A stretch of 64,000 nucleotides of DNA from Leptolyngbya sp. KIOST-1 (GTDB taxonomy: Bacteria > Cyanobacteriota > Cyanobacteriia > Phormidesmidales > Phormidesmidaceae). The notes beneath the pieces are model-generated. The model ran no database searches and had not been told where the DNA came from. It saw nothing but the letters and a program-made list of their open reading frames with translations. Shown in pieces: positions 29,708 to 61,354 of the stretch. Location of the stretch: NCBI RefSeq assembly GCF_000763385.1, contig NZ_JQFA01000002.1, positions 2,418,001-2,482,000 on the forward strand, written 5' to 3'. Made by a program: the position numbers and the translations under genes. Numbering within the stretch: position 1 is the stretch's first letter; each line of letters begins with the position of its first letter.

Positions 29708-30196
29708 ATGCCTCTACAACCGCCTTCACCTCCCTCCATCAGCCCCAGCCAGATGACCTTGCTGCGCATTGTGTCGACCATGGCCTGGAGCGATGGGCAT
29801 CTTGCTGACGAAGAGGTCGGCGTCATGCTGGATCAGTTTAGCCAACTGTTTGCCAGCAATCCTGGGCAGCAGTCCGCTCTACGCGATGAACTGCGCGACT
29901 ACCTGATGCAAAACTTGCCCCTGGAAGAACTGGTGCCCAAGCTCACCAACCCGGCAGAGCGAGAGCTTGTCCTCAAGCTGGGCCACCAGGTGATCAGCGC
30001 CAGTGCCCGCACCCCTGGAGAAGACCTGATCAATCAAGAGGAGGCGGACGCTTACAGGCACCTGGTCTCACTCCTCAACCTGCCCGAAGATGTGGTGGCA
30101 CGAATCGAGCAGGAAAGCGGTCAACCAGCCACTGACAACACCAATCTAATTGAGCAGTTGACCGCTGAGATCAAGACCTTCGTCGACGAGCACTAG
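29708..30196 (+). CDS. TerB-like (tellurite-resistance/DjlA N-terminal-type) protein
   Basis: The 162-residue protein is all helical. SQMTLLRIVSTMAWSDGHLA and DEEVGVMLDQF form the TerB signature of a helix pair with an acidic loop (Asp-Gly-x-x-x-x-Glu-Glu). A second, similar acidic helix pair follows (GEDLINQEEADAYRHLV). TerB proteins are small metal-binding or envelope-stress-related proteins; no function is established for this one. The TAG stop at 30194 coincides with the left end of a MITE-like element, and nadA is convergent. Confidence 0.75.
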   Translation: MPLQPPSPPSISPSQMTLLRIVSTMAWSDGHLADEEVGVMLDQFSQLFASNPGQQSALRDELRDYLMQNLPLEELVPKLTNPAERELVLKLGHQVISASARTPGEDLINQEEADAYRHLVSLLNLPEDVVARIEQESGQPATDNTNLIEQLTAEIKTFVDEH

Positions 30197-30322
30197 GGGC
30201 TGTCCTCAATTAGCTGCCAAACGCCTAAAAGTTAAGGGTTGCAGACCCTAGCCTGTTTTTTGGGTCGGGCGTGGCGAAGCGTGATATACCGAGCTTTTGA
30301 CCACAATTGGTGACACGCCCTA
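30194..30322 (+). mobile_element. TA-flanked MITE-like element between two stop codons
   Basis: This 129-bp non-coding element fills the entire gap between terB-like and nadA. The left end TAGGGGCTGTCCTCAATT and the right end, read on the other strand, TAGGGCGTGTCACCAATT match at about 14 of 18 positions. The TAG of the left end is the terB-like stop; the TAG of the right end is the nadA stop. TA occurs at both borders, as expected from TA target duplication (IS630/Tc1-type). An internal hairpin (GGGTTGCAGACCC) is followed by CCTGTTTTTT, like an intrinsic terminator. Relatives are at 31362 and 59574. Confidence 0.75.
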
Positions 30323-31361: not shown

Positions 31362-31487
31362 TAGGGCGGATGGTCAATTCCCGCTAAAATCCGTGTGCTC
31401 AGGGCCCACCACGCCTGAACCCCAAAAAAAACAGGGGCCGTAACCACTGCCTTTGGGCCATTAGAGGCTAATTGATGACAGCCCCTA
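31362..31487 (-). mobile_element. TA-flanked MITE-like element at the response-regulator stop
   Basis: This 126-bp element is read on the minus strand. Its left end TAGGGGCTGTCATCAATT begins exactly at the TAG stop of the OmpR-type gene. The far end, read on the plus strand, is TAGGGCGGATGGTCAATT. A GGGGC/GCCCC hairpin is followed by TGTTTTTTTT, a good terminator for the regulator gene. The internal order, including TTTTTGGGGTTCAGGCGTGG, parallels the element at 30194. Confidence 0.72.
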
Positions 31488-32234
31488 GCTCAGCGAGGAG
31501 GAGGCCAGACTGGGGCTCACCCGGGGACTATGGCCGTTAGATTCAGCGGAGGCGCGCTCGACATTGAAGCGGTAGCCAACATTGCGGACGGTTTGAATGA
31601 TGTTCGGCTGCCTGGGATCGACCTCGATCTTTTTGCGCAGAGAAAGAATGTGAGTGTCCACCGTCCTGGGGTTATCGATCGCATCGGGCCAGGCCCGGCG
31701 CAGGAGATCGGTGCGGCTGAGAGGGGCGCCAGCAGCCTGGGTAAGAACGTACAGCAGGCTAAATTCCTGGGGGGTCAAATCAATGTAGTCGCCGCGAAAG
31801 TTGACGCGCCGCTGCACCAGGTCAATGTTCAAGTCGCCGTAGGTCAGAGAGGCCGGGGCGCTCATCAACCGCACACGTCGGGTCAGCGCTTCAACGCGGG
31901 CCAAAAACTCCTGCATGCCAAAGGGCTTGGTGAGATAGTCGTCGGCCCCTGCTCGCAGCCCGGTGACGATGTCGGTTTCGGTGTTGCAGGCGGAGAGAAT
32001 CATGATCAGCGGTTGTCCCTGACTGTGCAGCCATTTACACAGCTCTACGCCATCGCCGTCGGGCAGCTGAGAATCTAAAATCACCAGGTCAGGCTGGCGG
32101 CTCTGAAACACATCACGGGTGCGAACTAAATCTGACGACTGAAAAACCCTATAGCCCGCCTGCTGAAGATGCCAGCCTAGGAGCGATCGCAAATGGGGAT
32201 TGCCCTCAATAATCTGTACAGATACAGAGCCCAC
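31485..32234 (-). CDS. OmpR-family response regulator
   Basis: The 249-residue protein has a receiver domain (residues about 5-118) with phospho-acceptor Asp in LVILDSQLPDGDG, Ser in MILSACNTETD and Lys in YLTKPFG. The N-terminal acidic pair is only partly kept (IIEGNP instead of Glu-Asp). A winged-helix DNA-binding domain follows (about 125-225, DLTPQEFSLLYVLTQ, RTVDTHILSLRKKI, TVRNVGYRFN). The Ser-rich tail is disordered. I could not decide between named cyanobacterial regulators. No histidine kinase is adjacent. Confidence 0.9.
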   Translation of the reverse strand: MGSVSVQIIEGNPHLRSLLGWHLQQAGYRVFQSSDLVRTRDVFQSRQPDLVILDSQLPDGDGVELCKWLHSQGQPLIMILSACNTETDIVTGLRAGADDYLTKPFGMQEFLARVEALTRRVRLMSAPASLTYGDLNIDLVQRRVNFRGDYIDLTPQEFSLLYVLTQAAGAPLSRTDLLRRAWPDAIDNPRTVDTHILSLRKKIEVDPRQPNIIQTVRNVGYRFNVERASAESNGHSPRVSPSLASSSLS

Positions 32235-57358: not shown

Positions 57359-57470
57359 GGTAAGGTCAACACCATCGACTATCATCTATTTCCCCAGGCA
57401 GGTTGGCGGCCTAGCCTCTGGATGGTGATATAGATTGGGTATTTCAAAGCAGCTCCCTACCAAGCAGGTT

Positions 57471-59576
57471 ATGACGCATTTCGGGTTGGATTTTTTTGCG
57501 GCGATCGCCGCGTCAGGAACCCTTGCTAAGGTCGTTCCCCTGCCCCTGGGGCAAATTTTGCAGGAGCCGATTACCGATCCGGTCGCTATCTTTCTGACCA
57601 TTTTGGCGATCATGCTGGTGGCCCCCCTATTAGTTGAACGGCTGCGGCTACCGGGCATTATTGGCCTGATTTTGGCCGGGGTTTTAGTTGGCCCTTACGG
57701 CCTGGGCATTTTAGAGCGCGATAGCACCATTGTCTTGCTGGGCACCATCGGGCTATTGTTCCTGATGTTCTTGGGCGGACTTGAAACCAGCCTCGATGAC
57801 CTCAAGCGCAACGCCGACAAACCCATTATTTTTGGTCTGGCTACCTTCGTTGTGCCCATGGTGATCGGCACCGGGGTGATGGTGGCTTTGGGCTACGGTT
57901 TTTGGGCGGCGGTGCTGGTGGCATCCTGCTTGGCCTCTCACACCCTGGTGGCGCTGCCGGTGCTCAACAAACTGGGCATCATGCGACACCCCTCCTCCAC
58001 CGCTACTCTGGGAGCCACGCTAATCACCAACGTACTGGCGCTGCTGGTGCTGGCGGTGGTGGTCAAGGCCGACCAGGGCGATCTAACCCTGGGCTTTTGG
58101 CTGTTTTTAATTCCGGCCCTGACGATCTATACCTTTGCGGTGCTGTGGGGGGTGCCCAGGCTGGGCCGCTGGTTTTTTAAAAAATTTGGCCACGATGAGG
58201 GGGCTGAGTTTACGTTTGTGCTGGCGGCCCTCTTTGTCGCCTCCTACCTGGCCAGCCTGATCGAAATCGAACCGATTGTAGGGGCTTTTTTGGCGGGGGT
58301 GGCCATCACTCAGATCATCCCTCGCCTCAGCCCGCTGATGAACCGGGTCCAGTTTATTGGTAATACCCTGTTTGTGCCCATCTTTCTGATTTCGGTGGGC
58401 ATGCTGGTAGATCCGCTGATTTTGCTCCGCGAGCCCCAGTCGCTGGTCTTAGTCGCCATCATCGTGCTGGCTGAGCTCCTCAGTAAGTTTCTGGCCGCCT
58501 GGGGATCTGCCCGCTGGTTCAAGTGGCCGTTTCCCAGCACCATGGTGATGTTTGGCCTATCCATGGCCCAGGCGGCCTCTACCCTGGCCGCCATCACCAT
58601 TGCCTTTGACATTGGCCTGGTAGACGAGGTGGTGGTCAATGCCATCATTCTGATGATTCTGGTCAGCTGCGTGTTGTCGCCGTGGGTGGTGGCCCGCTGG
58701 GGTGGTCAGCTTCAGACTCAGTCCGTTGAGGCGGCCCCGGCCCCGGCCAGTGACCAGCAGGCCCCAGCCGTGCTGCTGTTGGGCAAGCGCGTTTTGATTC
58801 CAGTGGCAAACCCTAGCACCGAGGACAATCTGCTGCAGCTGGCGATTATTCTGACCAAGCGGGTTGGGGGGACGCTGCTGCCCCTGCATGTGCTGCCCGA
58901 CCGCAACCAGCCCATTGCAGAGGCCGACAAAAACCGCCAGGAACGGCTGCTCGATACCGCCGAAACCATTGCCCATGCCGCCGCAATTCCGGTCGAAACC
59001 ATTGGCCGCATTGACGACTCCATTGCTTTGGGCATTTTGCGCACCATTCAAGAGCGCAATGCTGACCTGCTGATCTGCGGGTGGAAGGGCTTTTCGACCT
59101 ATCAGGAAAATTTCTTTGGCAGCGTTATCGATACCATCGTGCGATCGGCCACCATTCCAGTGTTGATCAGCCGCTTTCCACAGCCGATCGAGAATACCGA
59201 AAAGGTGGTGCTGGCGATTACCGGTCGGCAGGCGAGCCTGGGCCAGATCAAAAAGACCCTACCGATCACCCAGTCCCTGGCCGAAGAGCTCAAGGCTCCC
59301 CTGCATGTCGTGCAAGTGGCCGTTAGCTCGGCCCGCGATCGCAAGCTCACGGCCCTACTCCAGGAGAAGGACATCTCAGCACAGTTGGTGCATGGCAACA
59401 CGGTCAAGCGCGTCACCGAGGCAGTTCAGCCCAACACCCTGCTGGTTCTCATCGCCAGCACCCACATTGTTGGCCAGTCTGCCCTGGGTCGCGAGCCCGA
59501 AGCCATCGTTCGCGCCAACTGGGATACCAACATTCTGGTGCTGCACTTTCCCGCCAAACCGCGCCAGAAATCCTAG
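57471..59576 (+). CDS. Cation:proton antiporter (CPA2 type) with universal stress protein tail
   Basis: The product of about 701 residues starts with an antiporter domain of around 12 helices (residues about 30-420; LPGIIGLILAGVLVGPYGLG, GLLFLMFLGGLETSLDDLKR). The cytoplasmic C-terminal half has two USP-like folds (RVLIPVANPSTEDNLLQLAI; ADLLICGWKGFSTY). It exchanges Na+ or K+ for protons, and the USP part probably senses nucleotide or stress. The ATG at 57471 is preferred to a TTG at 57435. The TAG stop coincides with the border of a MITE-like element. Confidence 0.88.
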   Translation: MTHFGLDFFAAIAASGTLAKVVPLPLGQILQEPITDPVAIFLTILAIMLVAPLLVERLRLPGIIGLILAGVLVGPYGLGILERDSTIVLLGTIGLLFLMFLGGLETSLDDLKRNADKPIIFGLATFVVPMVIGTGVMVALGYGFWAAVLVASCLASHTLVALPVLNKLGIMRHPSSTATLGATLITNVLALLVLAVVVKADQGDLTLGFWLFLIPALTIYTFAVLWGVPRLGRWFFKKFGHDEGAEFTFVLAALFVASYLASLIEIEPIVGAFLAGVAITQIIPRLSPLMNRVQFIGNTLFVPIFLISVGMLVDPLILLREPQSLVLVAIIVLAELLSKFLAAWGSARWFKWPFPSTMVMFGLSMAQAASTLAAITIAFDIGLVDEVVVNAIILMILVSCVLSPWVVARWGGQLQTQSVEAAPAPASDQQAPAVLLLGKRVLIPVANPSTEDNLLQLAIILTKRVGGTLLPLHVLPDRNQPIAEADKNRQERLLDTAETIAHAAAIPVETIGRIDDSIALGILRTIQERNADLLICGWKGFSTYQENFFGSVIDTIVRSATIPVLISRFPQPIENTEKVVLAITGRQASLGQIKKTLPITQSLAEELKAPLHVVQVAVSSARDRKLTALLQEKDISAQLVHGNTVKRVTEAVQPNTLLVLIASTHIVGQSALGREPEAIVRANWDTNILVLHFPAKPRQKS

Positions 59577-59695
59577 GGGCTGTCATCAATGGGCTGCTAA
59601 CCGCTCAAAAAGTAAGGGTTACAGCCCCTAGTTAGCCTTGTTGGGTTCTGCTAACGCACCACCTAACCTACAAACTTAGGTTTGACAGAGCCCTA
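59574..59695 (+). mobile_element. TA-flanked MITE-like element between antiporter and amidase stop codons
   Basis: This 122-bp element has the left end TAGGGGCTGTCATCAAT and, read from the other strand, TAGGGCTCTGTCAAACC at the right. The first TAG is the antiporter stop and the second is the amidase stop. An internal perfect arm pair TAGGGGCTGT/ACAGCCCCTA forms a hairpin, without a long T-run here. It occupies the whole gap between two convergent genes, as at 30194. Confidence 0.75.
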
Positions 59696-61354
59696 GGGGC
59701 GACCGTTTAGGTAGTTGACAATCCCCTGGGCGATCGCCTGGCCCATCTGGGCCTGCCAGCGGGGGTCGCGCAGCTTGGGTGCATCGATGGCCCCGGTGAC
59801 AAAGCCAATTTCGATCAGGGCTGAGGGCATAGAGGTCCGCCGCAGCACTAAAAACCGGGCCTGGCGCACGCCGCGATCGTTCATGGCCAGGGTACTCAAG
59901 ACCTGATTTTGTAGGGCGGTGGCCAGCACCCGCCCCGCCTCCGAGTAGTAGTAGGTCTCCAAACCGTTGACCTCCGAGCGCTGCATGCTGATCGCGTTGG
60001 CGTGAATGCTGACAAAGACCGTCGCTCGGGCGGCCTCAGCCATAGTGGCCCGGGGCTGCAAATCCACCGTTTGATCGCTCTGGCGCGTCATCTGTACCGC
60101 GATGCCCTGAGCCTGAAGCGCCGCCGCCGTATGCTGGGCCACCGCCAGCACCACGCCTTTTTCCTGCAGACCGCCAATGCCAACGGCCCCAGGGTCGGCC
60201 CCACCGTGGCCGGGGTCGAGCATGACCAGCACTTGGCCCCGGTTGGGCCGCTGGGCTGTGACTACCGGCTGAGGGGCTGGACTCGCCACCGCCGGAGGTG
60301 CTACGGCGTGGTGCACGGGCGCTGGTGCTGCCGCTGAGTTGATCACCGGCAGCACTACCGTTGTGGGCGGTGCGGCAATCTGGCTGGGGGCAACGCCGAT
60401 GGGGGTCAGCCAAATGCCGCCATTGGCCAGGGGCGTAATCTGCCAGTCGGGGCTATACCCGTCCAGGGTCAGGGTAACGCGCACGGCGGGGGGCGCGGTG
60501 GCAAACTGAGTCAGGCTCCAGCGGTGAACCCCGTAGCGCCCCTGGGGCAGGGCCTCGGCGGACAGCCCCTGGGCGATCGCCGCATCCAGCAGATCGATCA
60601 CAATTTGTCGCGCCTGGTTGGCATCGCGGGTGCGGTAGACCTGCACCTGGGGGGCCGCTCCAGCCGTGGGGATGAAAAACCCCTCGGCGGTCGCCTGAAC
60701 CCCTCGCAGCACCGTGGCCGTGGCCCTGACCGCTGCCGGGTTGACCTGATTGCGGCTGATCAAGGGCGGCAGCGGCTCGGCCCCTACGGTTGTTAAGGGG
60801 CGCAGGGTCGCCGCCTTCGAGAGATCGGGAATGGTCAATGGACTGTTGGGAAAGTCTCCACCGGCGATCGCGCCAAGGCTACCCGGCAGCTGGACAACCC
60901 ACTGTTGGGCGGTCATACCCCACACTTTGACCTGCTTGGGGTCCAGGTTGTAATCGGGGCTGAGATCCAGCACCAGGCGGGTGGTGTGGGCGTCGGCCTG
61001 AATCACCCGTACCGCCTGCACCGTACCGCCAATGAACTGATCGCCCAGGGCATCATTTGACACGATACCGGGCAGATCAATGACCAGCTGATGGCTAGGC
61101 CACAGGCTGACCTGTGGCTCTACGCTGCTCTCGGTGGTGAAGACAAGGCGGTTCTGGCCGGGGTCAAACTGCCAGGCCTGGAGCCGCGCGCTGGCTTTTG
61201 CCGGCAGGCTGCCCAACAGACACACCCCGGCTATACTGACCACTCCCGAAAAAAACTGCCTTAGCCGCAATTGGGTCGATCTCCCCCGTACCACAGAAGT
61301 TAGCTCGGCGCTTGGTCCGAAGTTGGGCCCGCTCCGATGGCGATCGCGGGCCAT
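59693..61354 (-). CDS. N-acetylmuramoyl-L-alanine amidase with AMIN domain
   Basis: The 553-residue protein has a signal/anchor (FSGVVSIAGVCLLGSLPAKA) and an AMIN domain (about residues 55-155) for septal or pore localisation. A Pro/Ala-rich linker and a C-terminal Amidase_3 domain (about 375-550) follow. Zinc ligands are His in LDPGHGGADPG, Glu in LQEKG and His in VSIHANA; the catalytic Glu is in ALIEIGF. It cuts the amide between MurNAc and the stem peptide, as AmiC does in filamentous cyanobacteria. Confidence 0.93.
   Translation of the reverse strand: MARDRHRSGPNFGPSAELTSVVRGRSTQLRLRQFFSGVVSIAGVCLLGSLPAKASARLQAWQFDPGQNRLVFTTESSVEPQVSLWPSHQLVIDLPGIVSNDALGDQFIGGTVQAVRVIQADAHTTRLVLDLSPDYNLDPKQVKVWGMTAQQWVVQLPGSLGAIAGGDFPNSPLTIPDLSKAATLRPLTTVGAEPLPPLISRNQVNPAAVRATATVLRGVQATAEGFFIPTAGAAPQVQVYRTRDANQARQIVIDLLDAAIAQGLSAEALPQGRYGVHRWSLTQFATAPPAVRVTLTLDGYSPDWQITPLANGGIWLTPIGVAPSQIAAPPTTVVLPVINSAAAPAPVHHAVAPPAVASPAPQPVVTAQRPNRGQVLVMLDPGHGGADPGAVGIGGLQEKGVVLAVAQHTAAALQAQGIAVQMTRQSDQTVDLQPRATMAEAARATVFVSIHANAISMQRSEVNGLETYYYSEAGRVLATALQNQVLSTLAMNDRGVRQARFLVLRRTSMPSALIEIGFVTGAIDAPKLRDPRWQAQMGQAIAQGIVNYLNGRP

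What the first reader, a model, noticed from the sequence alone, without database searches (positions are those of the whole stretch)
59574..59695. Second convergent gene pair with both stop codons inside element ends
The antiporter TAG and the amidase TAG lie at the two ends of a 122-bp relative of the 30194 element. Two independent cases of both stops being supplied at the element ends in one window are hard to ascribe to chance. It suggests target selection for CTAG at overlapping stops or strong purifying selection against other insertions.
Basis: partly seen in the sequence, partly recalled or inferred. Interest (0 to 1): 0.6.

Follow-up and report, generated by a model that had tools for sequence, protein, structure and literature searches.

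The report
Mobile DNA scraps at stop codons
The 122-base stretch is a fusion of halves of two small mobile DNA families that insert at the letters CTAG, often exactly on a gene's TAG stop codon without changing the protein, so finding both neighbouring stops at its ends is a normal by-product and not a special signal.

Summary
The two TAG stops do lie at the ends of 59574-59695 (antiporter and amidase genes, Nodosilinea-group cyanobacterium). But the stretch is not one element related to 30194. Its left 57 bp is the 5' half of MITE family A (93% to consensus; 30194-30322 is a full 129-bp copy); its right 65 bp is the 3' half of another MITE, family B (91%). This junction is unique among 28 genomes.

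Family A inserts at TA, mostly in CTAG or CTAA. It begins with G and ends with C, so insertion into a C-TAG stop rebuilds the stop on both strands. In the home genome 38 genes reading into a copy stop exactly on its TAG and 2 out of frame; elsewhere 25 and 2.

Both stops coincide in 3 of 28 convergently flanked copies, about 5 expected from one-sided rates. At another locus (C2:2659398) a relative has the predicted uninterrupted geneA-CTAG-geneB overlap, and three relatives hold copies there in the opposite orientation.

At the focal site nine of ten relatives have separate stops; one overlaps in CTAA. The simplest history is two insertions, one per stop, fused by a deletion; a single insertion into a shared site remains possible. 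Ordinary MITE biology with an instructive stop-codon twist.

The parts
57435..59576 (+). Na+/H+ exchanger + Usp domain gene (antiporter); TAG stop 59574-59576
   Evidence: ORF; PF00999 1.9e-54, PF00582 7.6e-22; ends AKP + 4 residues + stop, the same length as in G003, G008, G015, G017
59573..59576 (.). left CTAG: target/stop junction, holds the antiporter TAG
   Evidence: sequence
59574..59630 (+). 5' half of a family A MITE (TAGGGGCTGTCATCAA...TTACAGCCCCTA)
   Evidence: 93% identity to the A consensus, z 15.8; 94 related 5' ends in the genome
59628..59631 (.). internal CTAG at the A/B join (about 2 bp overlap, AG)
   Evidence: A and B alignments overlap here; exact junction found only here in 28 genomes
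59631..59695 (+). 3' half of a family B MITE (AGTTAGCCTTGTTGGG...TTTGACAGAGCCCTA)
   Evidence: 91% identity to the B consensus, z 16.3; about 40 related matches in the genome
59693..59696 (.). right CTAG: holds the amidase TAG (minus strand); CTAG is also present at this stop in G004, G015, G017, G008, G001, G011
59693..61354 (-). AMIN + Amidase_3 (N-acetylmuramoyl-L-alanine amidase) gene
   Evidence: ORF; PF01520 3.3e-53, PF11741 4.7e-14
30194..30322 (+). full-length family A MITE (129 bp) between a + ORF and nadA, both stops at its ends
   Evidence: 88% / 93% identity of its halves to the A consensus; site lacks the element in G003, G004, G017
31362..31487 (-). divergent family A copy; its 5' end is the stop of a response-regulator gene
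   Evidence: 76% / 59% identity of its halves to A; gene 31485-32234

Best explanation
59574-59695 is the fused remnant of two miniature transposable elements (MITEs). Shown: the left half is the 5' half of family A and the right half is the 3' half of family B; both families are scattered in tens of copies and are bounded by TA, mostly within CTAG or CTAA. Shown: family A copies often sit exactly on a TAG stop codon and leave the protein unchanged. Inferred mechanism: a transposase acting in trans, of IS630/Tc1-mariner type, inserts the element into the TA of C-TA-R and duplicates TA. Because the element begins with G and ends with C, C-TA-[G...C]-TA-G rebuilds CTAG on both sides, so a TAG stop on either strand survives. 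Inferred history at this site: an A copy entered the antiporter's CTAG stop and a B copy entered the amidase's CTAG stop in the short convergent spacer. A deletion then removed A's 3' half, the spacer and B's 5' half, joining the remnants at a 2-bp overlap. That leaves one stop at each outer end with no need for overlapping stops.
For: Half-by-half identities: 93% to A and 91% to B, each near chance against the other family. Many full-length A (129 bp) and B (about 135-145 bp) copies. Chimeric junction unique in 28 genomes. Left base C in 82/94, right base G or A in 36/38. In-frame exactness 38:2 at home and 25:2 in other genomes. Empty/filled pair: G003 ACCACCTAGAGCTGG against G004 with a full A copy in that CTAG stop. 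Double-stop locus C2:2659398: empty CTAG in G002 with both proteins ending in it; filled in G000, and filled in reverse orientation in G003, G004, G017 with the same protein ends. Focal relatives: stops 11-232 bp apart in nine of ten; in G008 and G011 both stops are CTAG and separate (63 and 45 bp), the arrangement the two-insertion history needs. Two stops of one spacer taken separately in different species: the L156 site in G000 and G004.
Against: No autonomous element with these terminal repeats was found in the home genome or four relatives, nor among 125 further copies of the end, so the transposase type is inferred from the target only. The two-insertions-plus-deletion history is not observed in any intermediate, and one relative (G025) has overlapping stops in CTAA. 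The flank pairs are asymmetric (C/A 13, T/G 0), which a strand-symmetric target does not predict. Gene calls come from a simple codon score, not a curated annotation.
Confidence: 0.62

Rival explanations
1. One family A element inserted into a single CTAG (or CTAA) shared by both stops. A later exchange with a B copy, or nesting of B followed by deletions, replaced its right half.
For: Joined flanks read GAAATC-CTAG-GGGCGACC, a valid overlapping double stop. In G025 the antiporter and amidase stops overlap by 4 bp in CTAA. A CTAG overlap is seen uninterrupted at another locus in G002 and filled in four species. One element-free CTAG/CTAG overlap also exists in the home genome sample.
Against: In nine of ten relatives, including the closest by identity (G003, G004, G015, G017), the stops are separate. 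It needs an extra exchange or two deletions to make the A/B chimera.
Confidence: 0.28
2. The elements are kept at 3' ends because they work as two-way transcription terminators between convergent genes, so position is under positive selection.
For: 27 of 94 copies lie between convergent genes and 15 between divergent ones; the focal stretch holds one weak terminator-like match on the minus strand.
Against: 50 of 94 copies lie between tandem genes. The baseline is 25 convergent and 25 divergent of 119 pairs, so the shift is small. The consensus fold over 61 copies has almost no covariation support. One terminator-like match against 0.3 by chance.
Confidence: 0.07
3. Element ends truncate or extend genes, and the TAG at the end simply becomes the new stop by chance of frame.
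For: The ends do carry TAG in one frame.
Against: Frame counts 38:2 and 25:2 where about one third in frame is expected, P about 3e-16 for the home genome. Protein ends are unchanged against element-free relatives at C2:2659398 and have the same length at the focal site.
Confidence: 0.03

Closest known systems
IS630/Tc1-mariner family insertion sequences, e.g. IS630 (Shigella, CTAG preference) and ISY100 (Synechocystis)
   Same: Insertion at TA; CTAG preferred by IS630 (Tenzen and Ohtsubo 1991, cited in PMC2170065 and PMC6811581); TA duplication shown for ISY100 (PMC2170065).
   Different: No transposase is encoded and no parent with the same terminal repeats was found.
MITEPsy1 (Pseudomonas syringae), a 100-nt MITE inserting at CTAG or YTAA
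   Same: Short, non-coding, 18-nt terminal repeats, CTAG or YTAA target (PMC3189936).
   Different: Suggested to derive from ISPsy2, with a 4-nt duplication; here copies with left CTAG and right CTAA fit a TA duplication better, and the end sequences differ.
Small palindromic repeats of cyanobacteria (SDR-type repeats, GTAGGTTGGG...AACCCAACA repeats)
   Same: Short palindromic repeats scattered between genes; family B carries such a palindrome. The resemblance is from memory and was not tested here.
   Different: Family B as defined here is a two-hairpin unit with TA-flanked ends.
MITEAba12 (Acinetobacter)
   Same: MITE mobilised in trans; read-through into a copy can alter a gene's end (PMC6382973).
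   Different: 9-bp duplication and ISAba12 parent; no CTAG or stop preference in the passages read.

Membership tests
MITE (miniature inverted-repeat transposable element) | Short, multi-copy, no transposase gene | tested here: met
   129-bp full A copies; 94 5' ends in the home genome
MITE (miniature inverted-repeat transposable element) | Terminal inverted repeats | tested here: met
   TAGGGGCTGTCATCAATT / TAGGGCGTGTCATCAATT on opposite strands in full A copies. The focal chimera has one A end and one B end, so it is not a complete member itself
MITE (miniature inverted-repeat transposable element) | Precise insertion shown by an empty site | tested here: met
   G003 empty / G004 filled at the L156 site; G002 empty / G000 filled at C2:2659398. 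Not shown for the focal site
IS630-type MITE | 2-bp TA duplication at TA targets, CTAG preferred | tested here: inconclusive
   Flanks fit TA, but C before and G after the site leave TA, CTA and CTAG duplications hard to tell apart in the empty/filled pairs
IS630-type MITE | Resident IS630-family element with the same terminal repeats | tested here: not met
   DDE_3 loci read in the home genome and in G002, G003, G004 lack matching ends; G017 has no DDE_3 hit
IS5-type (MITEPsy1-like) MITE | 4-bp CTAG/YTAA duplication | tested here: inconclusive
   13 of 38 copies have left CTAG and right CTAA, against an exact 4-bp duplication; the one DUF4096 locus in the home genome has unrelated ends
Conserved structured RNA or terminator | Covarying stems | tested here: not met
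   Alifold over 61 copies: covariation term near zero; no Rfam match at gathering score other than two tRNAs

The most novel reading that the evidence does not exclude
A group of interchangeable two-hairpin MITEs, sharing one unknown transposase, is specialised on TAG stop codons: its end bases rebuild the stop on both strands, so gene ends act as a safe landing zone that is refilled again and again, in either orientation, in different species.
Probability: 0.2. Interest if true: 0.55.

Novelty: new member of a known kind. Interest (0 to 1): 0.33.

Why it matters
It shows with counts and empty sites how a CTAG-targeting element can insert exactly on stop codons without changing proteins. That explains why these repeats look as if they supply stops. 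It also warns that recurrent insertion at the same CTAG can mimic conservation of a functional spacer element.

Tried and rejected
Single 122-bp element hypothesis: rejected by half-wise alignment and by the unique junction. Autonomous parent: DDE_3 loci L126 and L123 looked promising because family A ends flank them, but they are other IS630-type elements inserted inside A copies; L125 has ends CTA-GTACTCTGAGGCG, only loosely like B; TTAA-ended and GCCGTC-ended variants in relatives are mostly about 129-bp MITEs again; 125 end matches in other cyanobacteria gave no full-length element. Functional RNA: no covariation, no Rfam match. Terminator: one weak match. An earlier reading of mine, that no relative has overlapping focal stops, was corrected (G025 overlaps in CTAA).

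Full report
What was checked. The focal stretch 59574-59695 lies between a + strand gene with Na_H_Exchanger and Usp domains and a - strand gene with AMIN and Amidase_3 domains. Both end in a TAG that is part of a CTAG at the outer edge of the stretch.

Anatomy. A search with the focal region against 28 genomes of the genus already split it: one set of repeats matches about 59572-59631, another matches about 59630-59696. Reading copies with their flanks gives two families. Family A is about 129 bp: TAGGGGCTGTCATCAATTAG...GGTTACAGCCCCTAGCCTGTCGTTTGGGTCGGGCGTGGC...CAATTGATGACACGCCCTA. Family B is about 135-145 bp: TAGTGCAGCGTCAAAGC...GTAGGTTGGGT...AACCCAACGGCAGTCAGCCTTGTTGGGTTCTGCTAGCGCGCCACCCAACCTACAAACTTAGGTTTGACAGAGCACTA. 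The focal left half is 93% identical to A and the right half 91% identical to B; the crosswise comparisons are near chance. 30194-30322 is a full A copy and 31362-31487 a divergent one. Other A/B mosaics exist (L053/L063, L064, L070, L073, L075, L078), but the exact focal junction occurs nowhere else in 28 genomes.

Target. In 94 family A 5' ends the base before TA is C in 82, T in 9, G in 3. In 38 copies with a clear 3' end the base after TA is G in 22, A in 14, C in 2. This fits insertion at TA in CTAR, as known for IS630 (CTAG) and ISY100 (TA) (PMC2170065, PMC6811581). A 4-bp CTAG/YTAA duplication, as in MITEPsy1 (PMC3189936), fits less well but is not excluded.

Gene context. With a simple codon-score gene caller, 22 of 58 genes reading into a left end and 13 of 29 reading into a right end stop exactly on the element's TAG. 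After adding the 30194 copy and using a slightly different gene filter, 23 left and 15 right stops are exact, and only 2 genes stop elsewhere inside an element. Truncation in random frame predicts about one third in frame; P is about 3e-16. In 115 copies from other cyanobacterial genomes the same test gives 25 exact and 2 out of frame. So the insertions sit on stops that already existed. Compared with other non-coding CTAG sites that a gene reads into (23 of 169 are stops), exact stops are enriched (odds ratio 4.3, P 3e-6). This control shares loci with the test set and depends on the gene calls, so only the direction is claimed. No family A copy lies inside a called gene in the home genome, whereas 259 of 589 control CTAG sites do.

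Both stops at once. In the home genome this holds for three of 28 convergently flanked copies (59574 as a chimera, 30194, and C2:2659398). The product of the one-sided rates predicts 5.1. In other genomes it holds for 2 of 33, where the one-sided rates (13/63, 12/62) predict about 1.3. The ends therefore behave independently, and two such cases in one window (P about 0.03 given two convergent copies) need no special selection.

Empty sites. At C2:2659398 the relative G002 has ...GCCTAGCGCACC..., with the left gene (260 codons) and the right gene (171 codons read) both ending in that one CTAG. G000 carries an A copy there in one orientation. G003, G004 and G017 carry A-type copies at the same CTAG in the other orientation, all with essentially the same protein ends. 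The copies are 58-72% identical to each other, so at least two insertions or an inversion are needed. At the L156 site G003 is empty, G004 has a full A copy in the left gene's CTAG stop, and G000 has one at the right gene's stop. At 30194 the relatives G003, G004 and G017 have no element; by reading the aligned junction their stops (TAG and TGA) are 4 bp apart, and both protein ends keep the same length in G000.

Focal site. In ten relatives where the two genes adjoin, none has this element. Nine have separate stops, 11-232 bp apart; the amidase stop is CTAG in six of them, and in G008 and G011 both stops are CTAG. One, G025, has the stops overlapping by 4 bp in CTAA (antiporter TAA, amidase TAG). 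The antiporter ends with AKP plus four residues in G000 as in G003, G008, G015 and G017, and the amidase ends in the same place, so neither protein was truncated or extended. G004 and G017 hold another, unrelated insert in the spacer. The history that needs fewest steps is an A insertion at the antiporter stop, a B insertion at the amidase stop, and one deletion with a 2-bp overlap. A single insertion into a shared CTAG or CTAA followed by exchange with B remains possible, and G025 shows that such a shared site can arise at this junction.

What was not found. No autonomous partner with these ends was found. No conserved RNA structure was found, and only weak terminator likeness at the focal site. 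The transposase type is therefore an inference from the target.

Verdict. The stop positions are real and the CTAG idea is broadly right for the family. The focal stretch is, however, a chimera of two MITE families, and the double coincidence is what independent insertions at stop codons predict.

Noticed in passing
window 1-64000: TAG is the commonest stop codon (31 of 50 called genes) and 15 of 50 genes end in CTAG, although CTAG is under-represented overall (111 against 172 expected).
   Followed up: partly
L126:1248-2697: An IS630-type element (DDE_3) sits inside a family A copy, between GGGTTA and AGCCCCTAG; the same element, 99% identical over 1324 bp, occurs in L127 without A flanks.
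   Followed up: partly
L123:1006-2106: A second, different IS630-type element (ends TATAGCTATAGCC) is inserted in another family A copy.
   Followed up: partly
L053, L064, L070, L073, L075, L078: Mosaics of families A and B with swapped halves or swapped ends, as if hairpin modules were exchanged or nested at internal CTAG sites.
   Followed up: partly
family A copies in G000: Flank pairs are C/G 20, C/A 13, T/G 0, T/A 1: more asymmetric than a strand-symmetric YTAR target predicts. Unexplained.
   Followed up: no
L003 and L004 (G004, G017), antiporter-amidase spacer: A different insert of about 150 bp with GGACTGGCGATTTT...AAAATCGCCAATCC ends occupies the same spacer in two relatives.
   Followed up: no
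G002 (Nodosilinea nodulosa PCC 7104): 27 DDE_3 transposase loci, several with identical scores, in a genome with 27 strong family A 5' ends; none of those read has matching terminal repeats.
   Followed up: partly
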